Of a DNA stretch of 40,321 nt, positions 35,770-40,321 are shown one piece after another. Origin of the DNA: Xanthobacteraceae bacterium (lineage in GTDB: Bacteria; Pseudomonadota; Alphaproteobacteria; Rhizobiales; Xanthobacteraceae); assembly GCA_030037065.1 (NCBI GenBank), contig JASHRW010000423.1:1-40321 (forward strand). The letters run 5' to 3'. A program made the position numbers and the translations under genes. How positions within the stretch are numbered: position 1 is the stretch's first letter; each line of letters starts with the position of its first letter. The notes beneath the pieces were generated by a model, which saw only the letters and a list, made by a program, of their open reading frames with translations, made no database searches and was not told the origin of the DNA.

Positions 35770-36906
35770 CTAATACCGGTACGGCGCGATTTCCAGATGC
35801 GGGAAGGCGCTGAACACGCTCGGCGGATTGGTCGGCGCCGCGGCGTGCAGGTAGGACGCATCGAGTTTTCCTAAGCTGGTGATGCCAAGGAGCCCCATCG
35901 AGCGCATCATCTCGTCTTCAAGAAGTTCGAGCATGCGCACGATGCCGGCCTGACCGGCCGCGGCGAGGCCGTAGCATTGCATACGGCCGAGGCCGACCAG
36001 GTGCGCGCCGAGTGCGATCGCCTTGACAATGTCGCTGCCGCGATAAAAGCCGCCGTCAATGATGATCTTGGCGCGTCCGGCGACCGCCTCGACGACTTCC
36101 GGCAGAACATCGGCCGAGCCGCGGCCGTGGTCGAGCTGACGGCCGCCATGATTGGAGACGTAGATAAAGTCGACGCCGTGATCGAGCGCGATCTTGGCGT
36201 CCTCGGCGGTGGCGATGCCCTTGATGGCGAGCGGAATTTTGAATTTTGTCTTGATACGTTCGACCGTGCGCCAGTCGAGCGCCTCTTGATATTCGCGGCC
36301 CGTGGCGCGGCGGCGGCCGCCGGTGATGTGGCGCTTGGCGATGTCGCGTTCGCGCCGGCTGTAATGGGCGGTGTCGACGGTCAGGCAGAACGCCGCGTAT
36401 TTGTTGGCGATGGCGCGGGCGACATAATCGTCGACCCAGGCGGCGTCGCCGCGGACATAGAGCTGAAAGATGCGCAGTGCATCCGGCCCCGCCTGCGCGA
36501 CGCCTTCGAGACCCGGATCGCACACCGACGACAACATATGGGCGACGCCGAATTCGGCCGCCGCCTTGACCACCGGCGTGGCGCCTTCGGGATGAAAACT
36601 TTCCAGCGAGCCGACCGGGCAAAGCACGATCGGCAGTCGCAGCTTGCCGCCGAGAATTTCCGTCGAGGTATCGACCTTGCTCACGTCGCGCAGCACGCGC
36701 GGCCGGAACGCGATCGAATCGAGTGCCATCCGGTTGCGCCGCAACGTCGTCTCAGTCTCCACGCCGCCGGCGATGTAATCCCAGGCGTTCTGGTTGAGGT
36801 TCTGCCGCGCCTTGTGCACGACCTCGTGCAGATTCATGAAGTCGGGACTGGCCGACAGCTTGGCCAGATAGGCGGCTTCGTCGCGTTTTTCGGTGCTCTG
36901 TTGCAT
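35770..36906 (-). CDS. FMN-dependent alpha-hydroxy acid oxidizing protein (LldD-like)
   Basis: AWDYIAGGVETETTLRRNR, AIKGIATAEDAKIALDHGVDFIYVSNHGGRQLDHGRGSADVLPEV, IIIDGGFYRGSDIVKAIALGAHLVGLGR. Start likely ATG 36906. Confidence 0.9.
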   Translation of the reverse strand: MQQSTEKRDEAAYLAKLSASPDFMNLHEVVHKARQNLNQNAWDYIAGGVETETTLRRNRMALDSIAFRPRVLRDVSKVDTSTEILGGKLRLPIVLCPVGSLESFHPEGATPVVKAAAEFGVAHMLSSVCDPGLEGVAQAGPDALRIFQLYVRGDAAWVDDYVARAIANKYAAFCLTVDTAHYSRRERDIAKRHITGGRRRATGREYQEALDWRTVERIKTKFKIPLAIKGIATAEDAKIALDHGVDFIYVSNHGGRQLDHGRGSADVLPEVVEAVAGRAKIIIDGGFYRGSDIVKAIALGAHLVGLGRMQCYGLAAAGQAGIVRMLELLEDEMMRSMGLLGITSLGKLDASYLHAAAPTNPPSVFSAFPHLEIAPYRY

Positions 36907-37046
36907 ACGCGTCGCTCGCTGCGGCCGATCGGCCGGAAAGGATGGAAGCCTTGCGGATTGCAAGGATGGCACGGGACGGTACAGGGCGGCAGGCGGCGAA
37001 TCAAGAAAGCGGCGAAGGGTGCAAATTAGCGCGAGTCTGCCCGCTG

Positions 37047-39953
37047 CTACTTCTTTGCACCTGCTTGCATTTGAGGCGTGATTCCGTATGCCGCGAATTC
37101 GTCTGGAATGTCGGGCTGAAGCACCTTAGCGGCGGTGACATCCTTATCGCCAGTCTCGACTTCATCTTTTTTCAACTCGGCTATGCCGCGTCCGTAAAGC
37201 GAGCTGGCGAGCTTGGGGTTGAGCTTCAGCGCGGCGGTATAGTCGGCAATGGAGTTGTCGTATTGCCCCAGCTTCAGGAAGACAAGCCCGCGGCTGTCAA
37301 GTGTGCTAGCGTCATTTGGTTTAAGTTTCAGAGATTGATTGCAATCTGACAGCGCGCTGTCGAGTTGGCCGAGCAGGGCGCGTGCCCAACACCGAAGGTT
37401 CCACAGCCACGCATTTGAGGGTTCAAGTTGAATCGCATGGTCAAGATTTTGAATCTCCGCCTGATAATCATGTTTTGAATCTAGCAGTTCCGCGATTTCC
37501 TGGTATGTTGCCCTGAGGATTGACTGCAGATCAGTATTAGAATGGTCGCTGTCGAGGAGCTTTTGACGAATGGCAAGTGTGTTGCGAAGATTGACGAGGG
37601 CGTCGTCCGGCTTGTTCTGACGCCAGAGCACCTCGGCAATCGACTGATAGGTTGAGGCGAGATCACGCTGCCAAAGTGCGTTGTTCGGATCGATTGCCAC
37701 CAGGCGCGTCCTGATCGCAAGGCTGGCGTGGTAGGCCTGCAGCGCATCGTCGAGCTTACCTTGTCCTACCAGGATCTTGCCAACAACGTAGTGGGCTACA
37801 GCAAGGTCGCGTTGCCACCAATTCTCATTTGAATTCGCCCCGACCAGCTGGGTCAAAATCGCTATGCCGTCGCGATACACAGTCAGTGCGTCTTCGGACT
37901 TGCCCAGAGCCCAGAGGGCGGAACCAAGCCGCAGATTGGAAGTCGCCAAAACGGCTTTGAAGGTTGGATCGTTGGGAGCCAAGCTCACGGCGGCTTTGGC
38001 AAATTCCACGGAATCGCGATAGGCGGCGATTGCCTCATCCGGCTTGTGCTGAGCAAGGAGAATGTCGGCCATTCGATAAGCCACAAGCGACAGCGATCCT
38101 TGATTGCCCACCACTGTTGGCTCTTGGGCGGCTATTGATTTGAATTTGCTTTCGGCCTCTCGGTAGTCAGAGAGCGCGTCATCAAGTTTCCCCTGCTGCT
38201 TAAGCATGTCGCCTATATGGGCCAAACTCACCGCAAGATCGCGTTGCCAGTCAGTGCGTGTTGGATCTTTCGCCACCAGCGCCTGTGCAATGCGGTGGCA
38301 GTCTTGGTATGCGGAAAGTGCGTCGGCAGATCTGCCCATCACGACCAGGAGATCGCCCAGTTTTTCGTCGCTGCTCAGCAGCTCTCGCTGTGCCACGGTG
38401 TTGGTCGGGTCCAGGCCGCTGAAATTCTTTGCAACGCTCTGGCTGTCGCGAAAAGCGCTCAAAGAGTTTTCAAATTTACCCTCAGCCTTTAAAACAATGC
38501 CCATTTGCAAATCGGCGGCCCAAACATCTTCGAGAGCCGGAAAACTGTGGGAGTCTTTTGCGGAAGCCTGTTGGGCGATTGCAAGCTCGCGCCGATAGGC
38601 AGCGAGCGCTTCGTCTATTTTTCCTTGATCTGCCAGCGCAAGGCCAATGTCGCCGTATGTGTCGGCGACGGCAAGCTGCAACGACGAGTCGTTGGGATTC
38701 TTCGTAGCAATTGCTTGGCGGGTGGCGAGCGCCTCGCGAAAAGATGCGAGCGCATCGTCGAGTTTGCCCTGTCCCTCAAGCACTAATCCGATATTGACGT
38801 AGGCGACGGCGAGGTCGTTCTGCCACTCTGCCTTGGTCGGGTCCTGGGCGACGAGCACTTTGTCGTTAGCCAAGCTGTCGCGATAGCTGGCAAGTGCTTG
38901 CATAGGCTTTCCGAGCTTGATCAACGCGTTGCCGATACGCTCTTCGCTCCCGGCCAACCCAGCACGCCAGTCTTCGTTGTCAGGTTCCGTTGCAACCAGG
39001 CGCAGCAAGAGCGACTGCGCCTGACGAGCAGAGTCCAGAGCGGCTTGAGCGTCGCCAAGTGTTTCAAGCGTCACGGCCGTTTCGTTCAGAGCCAAAGCCT
39101 CGCTCCGTAGCAGGTCCAGGCTGACCTCACCTTGTCCTATAAGCTGCTCCTGGAGTTTTCGGGCGCGGTCAAGGATGTCTTTGACAAGCGTCGAAGGGAT
39201 GCCCACGACATCTCTGAGCTTGAGTGCCAAATCTTTCACAAGAGCATTAGCGGTGTTTGTTGCGGTCGTGAGCGTTTGCTCTGCGCGATTGCGCTCGGCG
39301 ATCGCCACTCTTTGCTCATGGTAAGCCAGGATGCCCGCTGCGCTTGCCGCGATGGCCAGGATGAGCAATGCGGCGGCTGCGCCGATTGCAAGCCGCAGTG
39401 CGCGGCGCTGTTGGCGCACCTCCTCTGACAGCAAATCCTCTTTCGGTACGTCGCGGATCGCAGCGGCAAAGTCGGCGACAAGATCGGTGAATTTGGCGTC
39501 ACGCTTGTCCGCGTCTTGGCGATACGGACGCAAATCGACCCATTTCGGCTCGTTAGGGAAGCGCTTGGCCAGAACGGGCGGCAGGGGATGCGTTGCGCTT
39601 GCGGCAAAATCGGCGATGGCTTCATCCCACCTCAATTCGCCGTCGCACAGCCCAATCAACAACGTATCAACTGAATTGTGTTCGAGCCAAAAGGTAACCT
39701 CCTTATTGACCCATTTGGAAGCGGCAGCTTCCGGCGAGGCGAGGAGGAGGAAATGGCGCGATTGCCCGAGCGCCTGTTCGATCATTGGCCATAGGTGGGG
39801 CGTGGCCGACAAGCTTGTGTCGTCGCGAAATAGCCGCAGCGCGCGACGCTTGTACCACGGCTTTCCAAGCTTCTGAATCGCCGACTGCAATGCCGCTGCT
39901 ATCGACTTATCCTTGGTGTGGCTGTATGAAATGAACGCGTCATAGAGCGCCAT
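37047..39953 (-). CDS. TIR-domain protein with a single TM segment and a long TPR array
   Basis: MALYDAFISYSHTKDKSIAAALQSAIQKLG..LFRDDTSLS..FLLLASPEAAASKWVNKEVTFWLE (TIR); TM LAIGAAAALLILAIAASAAGILAY; tandem units such as LAVAYVNIGLVLEGQGKLDDALASFREALATRQAIATKNPN. Start ATG 39953. Confidence 0.88.
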   Translation of the reverse strand: MALYDAFISYSHTKDKSIAAALQSAIQKLGKPWYKRRALRLFRDDTSLSATPHLWPMIEQALGQSRHFLLLASPEAAASKWVNKEVTFWLEHNSVDTLLIGLCDGELRWDEAIADFAASATHPLPPVLAKRFPNEPKWVDLRPYRQDADKRDAKFTDLVADFAAAIRDVPKEDLLSEEVRQQRRALRLAIGAAAALLILAIAASAAGILAYHEQRVAIAERNRAEQTLTTATNTANALVKDLALKLRDVVGIPSTLVKDILDRARKLQEQLIGQGEVSLDLLRSEALALNETAVTLETLGDAQAALDSARQAQSLLLRLVATEPDNEDWRAGLAGSEERIGNALIKLGKPMQALASYRDSLANDKVLVAQDPTKAEWQNDLAVAYVNIGLVLEGQGKLDDALASFREALATRQAIATKNPNDSSLQLAVADTYGDIGLALADQGKIDEALAAYRRELAIAQQASAKDSHSFPALEDVWAADLQMGIVLKAEGKFENSLSAFRDSQSVAKNFSGLDPTNTVAQRELLSSDEKLGDLLVVMGRSADALSAYQDCHRIAQALVAKDPTRTDWQRDLAVSLAHIGDMLKQQGKLDDALSDYREAESKFKSIAAQEPTVVGNQGSLSLVAYRMADILLAQHKPDEAIAAYRDSVEFAKAAVSLAPNDPTFKAVLATSNLRLGSALWALGKSEDALTVYRDGIAILTQLVGANSNENWWQRDLAVAHYVVGKILVGQGKLDDALQAYHASLAIRTRLVAIDPNNALWQRDLASTYQSIAEVLWRQNKPDDALVNLRNTLAIRQKLLDSDHSNTDLQSILRATYQEIAELLDSKHDYQAEIQNLDHAIQLEPSNAWLWNLRCWARALLGQLDSALSDCNQSLKLKPNDASTLDSRGLVFLKLGQYDNSIADYTAALKLNPKLASSLYGRGIAELKKDEVETGDKDVTAAKVLQPDIPDEFAAYGITPQMQAGAKK

Positions 39954-40212
39954 GGCGCAAGCCCCTGCTGCCGGCCGGGCCGCTGTGAACGCGCAAGGCG
40001 ACAAAACTCGGCCACAATAGCCCCAAGCAAACATAATCTAGACGGGGCATGCGCCGCTTGACAATTCTTGCGGCCCCGCTGGGTTAACGCCGTCACGCCA
40101 ATACGACGGGAGGATTTTTTCGAGCCAAGGAGAGCTAGATCAGAATGCTGCGCGAGTTGCACCGACCTTTCGGGCCAGCGCTGATACCGGGTGTCTATGT
40201 GGTAGTGATTGA

Positions 40213-40235
40213 CCTCGTCCGCGGCTAGGACGAGG
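40213..40235. terminator. Possible terminator hairpin downstream of the tRNA
   Basis: CCTCGTCC(40213-40220) GCGGCTA GGACGAGG(40228-40235), perfect 8-bp stem; no strong U-tract. Confidence 0.35.
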
Positions 40236-40242
40236 ACGTAAT

Positions 40243-40319
40243 TGGCGGTCCCGACAGGACTCGAACCTGTGACCTTCGGTTTAGGAAACCGCTGCTCTAT
40301 CCGGCTGAGCTACGGGACC
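40243..40319 (-). tRNA. tRNA-Arg (anticodon CCT), CCA encoded
   Basis: Minus strand GGTCCCGTAGCTCAGCCGGATAGAGCAGCGGTTTCCTAAACCGAAGGTCACAGGTTCGAGTCCTGTCGGGACCGCCA; acceptor GGTCCCG/CGGGACC, anticodon loop TTCCTAA, T-loop GGTTCGAGTCC. Confidence 0.95.
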
Positions 40320-40321
40320 AA

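What the first reader, a model, noticed from the sequence alone, without database searches (positions are those of the whole stretch)
37047..39953. Receptor-like TIR-TM-TPR protein beside a tRNA gene
Seen: N-terminal TIR domain with a Glu in the SKWVNKEV motif where bacterial TIR NADases carry their catalytic Glu, then an Arg-rich stretch (RQQRRALRL), one clear TM helix, then about nine to ten TPR-like units with a regular ~48-residue period. The Arg-rich flank on the TIR side predicts a cytosolic TIR and an extracytoplasmic TPR array. That order (repeat ectodomain, TM, TIR) resembles Toll-like receptor topology and differs from typical soluble TIR-STAND defence proteins. Codon usage looks less GC-rich than the neighbours, and the gene lies ~290 bp from tRNA-Arg, a typical island anchor. 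A role in defence or signalling is inference.
Basis: partly seen in the sequence, partly recalled or inferred. Interest (0 to 1): 0.72.

Follow-up and report, generated by a model that had tools for sequence, protein, structure and literature searches.

The report
Membrane-spanning bacterial TIR-TPR receptor-like protein
This gene encodes a bacterial protein with a probable NAD-cutting immune (TIR) domain inside the cell, one membrane-crossing segment, and a long, probably outside-facing, scaffold of TPR repeats; it looks like a mix-and-match alarm receptor gained next to a tRNA gene, built from known parts in a little-described arrangement.

Summary
A TIR domain carries an invariant W81xxxE85 motif. 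One hydrophobic helix follows (188-212), then about eleven 48-residue helix pairs modelled as a confident TPR superhelix, ending in shorter TPRs. No STAND ATPase is present. The gene is accessory: the close TIR subfamily occurs in 1 of 20 congeners, 7 of 300 family genomes and 8 of 397 order genomes. In six congeners tRNA-Arg(CCT) lies only 45-159 bp from the downstream oxidase gene (an empty site). Here about 3.2 kb, holding only this gene and a leader, was inserted (or lost elsewhere). No integrase or att repeat was found. The TM-linker-TPR module is shared with unrelated TIRs and nSTAND1 ATPases, and the same TIR also occurs on WD40 modules; a tree test rejects co-inheritance of TIR and receptor module (p~1e-8). 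Neighbours of homologues are mostly housekeeping genes; only two loci have a defence-like neighbour, each time a TIR-nSTAND1-TM-repeat gene. Best reading: a membrane-embedded TIR NADase receptor that signals damage or attack at the envelope. Topology is well supported; NADase activity and a defence role are inferred. New variant of a known kind.

The parts
37047..39953 (-). TIR-TM-TPR gene, 968 aa (a longer ATG start at 40034 adds 27 aa that the homologue alignment does not support)
39438..39953 (-). TIR domain, residues 1-172
   Evidence: Pfam TIR_2/ThsB_TIR above cut-off; model pLDDT 84 and Foldseek TIR hits
39699..39713 (-). W81-V-N-K-E85: putative catalytic WxxxE motif in the helix at residues 80-92
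   Evidence: E85 invariant in 15 homologues; aligns with the Glu of RUN1 and 3h16 TIRs; WxxxE Glu needed by most bacterial TIR NADases (PMC11374754)
39393..39416 (-). Arg-rich cytosolic flank RQQRRALR, residues 180-187
39318..39392 (-). single predicted transmembrane helix, residues 188-212
   Evidence: only segment over hydropathy 1.4; inside one helix 177-213 in the model, low confidence
39120..39317 (-). juxtamembrane helical linker, residues 213-278, shared with other TIR and nSTAND1 proteins
37164..39119 (-). TPR superhelix, residues 279-930: about eleven 48-residue helix pairs, then canonical 34-residue TPRs
   Evidence: pLDDT mostly over 90; 48-residue autocorrelation; Foldseek TPR solenoids such as OGT
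37015..40239 (.). segment absent from congeners (about 3.2 kb): leader plus TIR-TM-TPR gene only
   Evidence: similarity to empty-site congeners stops at the tRNA 3' end and resumes at about 37014
40243..40319 (-). tRNA-Arg (CCT), the anchor of the variable site
35770..36972 (-). alpha-hydroxy-acid oxidase/dehydrogenase-like gene (named by reading, not by a family search), conserved neighbour on the far side of the variable site
   Evidence: 76-90% identical in 10 congeners

Best explanation
The protein is a stand-alone, membrane-embedded TIR receptor-effector. Shown from sequence, homologues and models: an N-terminal TIR with the WxxxE glutamate, one transmembrane helix, and a long C-terminal TPR superhelix. 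Inferred with good support: the TIR is in the cytosol and the TPR array in the periplasm. Inferred: binding of a protein or other signal at the envelope clusters the receptors, through the TPR superhelix and the helical juxtamembrane linker. Clustering brings TIR domains together, completes their composite active sites, and the TIRs cleave NAD+. The result would be growth arrest or death of a damaged or phage-attacked cell, or a nucleotide signal. The receptor half is an exchangeable cassette: TIRs of this kind recur on TPR or WD40 cassettes, and the same cassettes recur on nSTAND1 ATPases. Estimates per step: architecture 0.97; TIR in, TPR out 0.85; active NADase 0.7; defence or regulated cell death 0.5.
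For: TIR fold and invariant WxxxE Glu (PMC11374754). Single TM; a large N-terminal domain with no signal peptide; N-side net charge exceeds C-side in 13 of 17 homologues, 2 ties. On cassette relatives the N side carries an nSTAND1 ATPase, which needs cytosolic ATP. Cassette shuffling: linker tree rejects the TIR subfamily as a clade, p-AU 1.2e-8; the same TIR on WD40 in L034 and L125. Patchy distribution, empty sites, atypical GC and TIR counts of 0 to 14 per congener fit a fast-turnover accessory immune-type gene. Two homologues adjoin TIR-nSTAND1-TM-repeat genes. A TIR-STAND-TPR protein is a validated single-gene anti-phage system (PMC9122126).
Against: No STAND or other switch domain in the polypeptide. 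No defence island: of 109 neighbour proteins scanned, the clear defence-type hits are the two TIR-nSTAND1 genes. Charge bias is modest (+1 against 0 for this protein). No NADase or phage data exist. About four of some 17 related copies are frame-broken (L032, L035/L052, L050, G026:C46), so selection to keep it is weak in places.
Confidence: 0.5

Rival explanations
1. It is an amplifier or co-receptor of a two-gene system: it is recruited by a TIR-nSTAND1-TM-TPR protein carrying a related cassette, the ATPase doing the sensing and switching.
For: In G551 (L129) and G335 (L130) the homologue lies directly beside a TIR-nSTAND1-TM-TPR or TIR-nSTAND1-TM-WD40 gene; in L129 the two linkers are sisters in the tree, weakly (85/54), within a starred clade. 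The window's genome also has a TIR-nSTAND1 (C75) and another TIR-TM-TPR with a related linker (C124).
Against: Only 2 of about 17 loci show the pair; in L130 the two repeat types differ (TPR against WD40). In the window the gene stands alone, and its genome may pair it only in trans.
Confidence: 0.2
2. It is not immune: the TPR array scaffolds periplasmic or envelope assembly, or reports envelope stress, and the TIR acts as a non-enzymatic cytosolic assembly domain.
For: TPR solenoids are generic scaffolds; homologues lie among housekeeping genes; some TIRs signal without NADase activity (PMC9153377).
Against: WxxxE Glu is invariant in all aligned homologues; patchy presence and broken copies do not fit a housekeeping role.
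Confidence: 0.2
3. The TPR array is cytosolic: the hydrophobic segment is only a membrane anchor or hairpin, and the sensor reads an intracellular signal as in soluble TIR-STAND-TPR proteins.
For: Validated TIR-STAND-TPR proteins are NLR-like sensors of infection without a reported membrane segment (PMC9122126); the charge bias is small.
Against: A 25-residue uncharged segment flanked by charged ends is long enough to span the membrane once; one crossing with a large N-terminal cytosolic domain puts the C terminus outside.
Confidence: 0.1

Closest known systems
TIR-STAND-TPR single-gene anti-phage systems (bacterial NLR-like; PMC9122126)
   Same: N-terminal TIR effector and C-terminal TPR sensor in one protein
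   Different: No STAND NTPase here; a transmembrane helix instead; TPRs predicted outside the cytosol
TIR-TM-TPR / TIR-TM-WD40 proteins, and nSTAND1-TM-repeat proteins, of the same genome and order (found here)
   Same: Same layout; the same TM-linker-TPR cassette (about 48-50% identical to C124 and L101)
   Different: Different TIR class or an ATPase on the N side; only the TIR half of the window protein belongs to its own subfamily
Bacterial TIR group 6 (N-terminal TIR plus multiple C-terminal TPRs; Toshchakov and Neuwald, PMC7075850)
   Same: TIR first, many TPRs, large protein
   Different: Group 6 is mainly actinobacterial, with other box motifs; the passages read do not mention a TM
Animal Toll-like receptors
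   Same: Working layout: repeat ectodomain, single TM, cytosolic TIR
   Different: Opposite chain order, LRRs instead of TPRs, TIR that recruits adaptors; no sign of common descent as a receptor
Thoeris ThsB TIR
   Same: Pfam ThsB_TIR matches above its cut-off
   Different: ThsB is a separate TIR protein partnered with ThsA; no such partner found

Membership tests
TIR domain (PF13676) | Profile match above curated cut-off and TIR fold | tested here: met
   34.5 bits against 28; Foldseek TIR hits at probability ~1.0
Bacterial TIR NADase | WxxxE glutamate in helix C | tested here: met
   W81/E85 in helix 80-92; E85 invariant in 15 rows
Bacterial TIR NADase | NAD+ cleavage | not testable with these tools
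   needs an assay
TIR-STAND-TPR (NLR-like) anti-phage protein | Central STAND NTPase | tested here: not met
   No NTPase model matches the 968 aa
Thoeris | ThsB TIR with a ThsA partner in the neighbourhood | tested here: not met
   PADLOC ThsB match only E 7e-5; no ThsA among 109 neighbours of homologues; window neighbours judged by reading only
Toll-like receptor | N-terminal LRR ectodomain, TM, C-terminal TIR | tested here: not met
   TIR is N-terminal and repeats are TPRs
Single-pass TIR-TM-repeat protein | One TM between TIR and a repeat domain | tested here: met
   same layout in C124, C7, C161 and C282 of the genome
Single-pass TIR-TM-repeat protein | Repeats outside the cytosol | tested here: inconclusive
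   Charge bias in 13 of 17 and ATPase on the N side of cassette relatives; no experiment
tRNA-integrated genomic island | Integrase and direct repeat of the tRNA end | tested here: not met
   No repeat of 12 bases or more of the tRNA/3' flank elsewhere in the window; the ~3.2 kb segment holds only this gene
Defence island cargo | Defence genes around homologues | tested here: not met
   Only 2 of 16 homologue loci, and there only TIR-nSTAND1 genes

The most novel reading that the evidence does not exclude
A bacterial counterpart in working principle to Toll-like receptors: a one-protein transmembrane receptor whose periplasmic TPR solenoid recognises a ligand (for instance a phage or envelope protein) and directly switches on a cytosolic TIR NADase without any STAND ATPase, drawn from a pool of interchangeable receptor cassettes (TPR, WD40, possibly others) shuffled among TIR and STAND effectors.
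Probability: 0.3. Interest if true: 0.75.

Novelty: new variant of a known kind. Interest (0 to 1): 0.5.

Why it matters
Characterised bacterial TIR defence proteins are mostly soluble and read signals inside the cell (from general knowledge). If the topology holds, this class would read the periplasm and fire a cytosolic NADase through a single helix, making direct outside-in immune sensing in bacteria testable with one gene. The shuffling of one TM-TPR cassette between TIRs and STAND ATPases gives a concrete handle on how such receptors diversify.

Tried and rejected
Integrative island with attachment repeats: no repeat found. An integrase-like remnant beside the tRNA in congener G013 was my reading; Pfam found nothing. 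Defence-island context: searched 109 neighbours, essentially negative; mad3, mad8 and similar hits are probably generic ATPases. Phase variation in the split copy of G045 (L050): no homopolymer at the break, so treated as a frameshifted copy. Literature searches for membrane-spanning bacterial TIR receptors found none, but most subscription papers are not held. Foldseek of the full model returns only generic TPR solenoids. One linker search failed for wrong coordinates and one Pfam call likewise.

Full report
Observation. The gene lies on the minus strand, 39953 to 37047, 968 codons from the ATG at 39953. Homologues begin at the same place, so the longer ATG start at 40034 is not favoured. Pfam finds TIR_2 (34.5 bits, cut-off 28), ThsB_TIR and many TPR models, and no NTPase. 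AlphaFold2 gives a TIR domain at mean pLDDT 84, and Foldseek against the PDB returns TIR domains of TLR1, SPARTA, MyD88, SARM1 and RUN1 at probability about 1.0, with modest TM-scores of about 0.4-0.6. The full model shows the TPR part as a superhelix mostly above 90 pLDDT, helices of 20-21 residues every 24 residues, about eleven 48-residue pairs, ending in shorter TPRs. The 48-residue period is far beyond chance. Only residues 183-214 pass a hydropathy threshold.

Catalytic motif. W81-V-N-K-E85 sits in the helix at residues 80-92. E85 is invariant and W81 nearly invariant in 15 aligned homologues. Profile alignments pair E85 with the Glu of the RUN1 TIR and of the bacterial TIR 3h16; the alignment to the RUN1 E100A mutant chain stops just short of that position. 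PMC11374754 states that most bacterial TIR NADases depend on the Glu of a WxxxE motif in helix C. Activity itself is untested.

Topology. Net charge of 15 residues is higher on the TIR side in 13 of 17 homologues, with 2 ties and 2 opposite. The bias is modest. A stronger argument is that relatives carrying the same cassette have a TIR plus nSTAND1 ATPase on the N side of the same helix, and an ATPase needs cytosolic ATP; with a single crossing the repeats are then outside. This is inference; experiments are needed.

Cassette shuffling. The window's TIR is 66-68% identical to TIRs of several Hyphomicrobiales proteins, but its linker is only 38-47% identical to most of theirs; it is 56-58% identical to the linker of C124 (a different TIR class, same genome) and of an nSTAND1 protein, L023/L101. 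Over a longer stretch the figures are 48-50% for L050, L101 and C124 and 40% or less for most TIR orthologues. A maximum-likelihood tree of the linker rejects the TIR subfamily as one clade (p-AU 1.2e-8), and L047's linker groups with that of a different TIR class (96/96). The same TIR type also occurs on WD40 repeats (L034, L125). The genome has five proteins with TIR, TM and TPR or WD40 (C126, C124, C7, C161, C282).

Distribution and site. With the TIR-TM query, 7 of 300 family genomes match; with the TIR profile, 8 of 397 of the order and 3 of 399 of the phylum (two of them weak), each count including the window's own genome. Among 20 genomes of the genus only the window's own has it. In G001, G003, G009, G010, G011 and G019 tRNA-Arg(CCT) is followed at 45-159 bp by the oxidase gene. 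G006, G007 and G013 carry other genes in the gap: an FkbM methyltransferase; an MFS transporter with a LysR regulator; and several others. In the window, similarity to the congeners ends at the tRNA 3' end and resumes at about 37014, 33 bp past the stop codon. The extra ~3.2 kb therefore holds this gene and a 0.29 kb leader only. No direct repeat of the tRNA end was found. Loss in the others is possible but needs more events than gain. The gene's GC is 0.566 against 0.630 +/- 0.027. The TIR count per congener runs from 0 in about half of them to 14 here.

Neighbours of homologues. Of 109 proteins within about 4.5 kb of 16 homologue loci, PADLOC finds only two TIR-nSTAND1 proteins plus generic matches; the rest are mostly metabolic genes. 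The two exceptions, L129 and L130, place a TIR-nSTAND1-TM-TPR or TIR-nSTAND1-TM-WD40 gene immediately beside the homologue.

Interpretation. The anatomy (known effector, single TM, shuffled receptor cassette, patchy presence) best fits a receptor-effector that turns a signal at the envelope into TIR activity. TIR-STAND-TPR proteins are validated anti-phage systems in which the TPRs are proposed to sense phage (PMC9122126), and C-terminal sensors such as TPRs of antiviral STAND proteins bind conserved phage proteins (PMC10907252). What is missing here is the STAND switch; the membrane helix could replace it by clustering. Defence is the likelier role but not shown.

Known or new. TIR plus TPR in bacteria is known (PMC7075850; PMC9122126). 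I found no paper describing a bacterial TIR receptor with repeats across the membrane, but the held library is partial. I therefore call it a new variant of a known kind.

Noticed in passing
G000:C231 (L009:1-1962, minus strand): TIR, long charged coiled coil, TM, then tandem beta-sandwich-like repeats (weak GldM_3rd match, below cut-off): another TIR-TM layout whose C-terminal part looks extracytoplasmic.
   Followed up: partly
L120:318-2477 (G301): TIR-TM protein in a 1819-residue open frame with about 42-residue repeats (YDERGN...FGIDGKP...) that match no Pfam repeat model.
   Followed up: partly
L129:7641-14148 and L130:2897-8938: Adjacent same-strand pairs: a TIR-TM-TPR homologue beside TIR-nSTAND1-TM-TPR (L129) or TIR-nSTAND1-TM-WD40 (L130).
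   Followed up: partly
window genus, 20 genomes: TIR_2 counts per genome are very uneven: 0 in about half, 6-14 in a few.
   Followed up: partly
L050:8267-11163, L032:7986-10183, L035:8001-8387, G026:C46: Frame-broken copies of the same TIR-TM subfamily, a sign of birth-and-death evolution.
   Followed up: partly
G001:C317:19413-21723: A 46-base copy of the 5' part of tRNA-Arg(CCT) about 2.2 kb upstream of the full gene, with a long secreted-looking protein between them; possible trace of an insertion at this tRNA.
   Followed up: no
window 40125-40321 and G000:C135 (L093): C135 overlaps the window's right end by 197 identical bases and continues it beyond the tRNA.
   Followed up: partly
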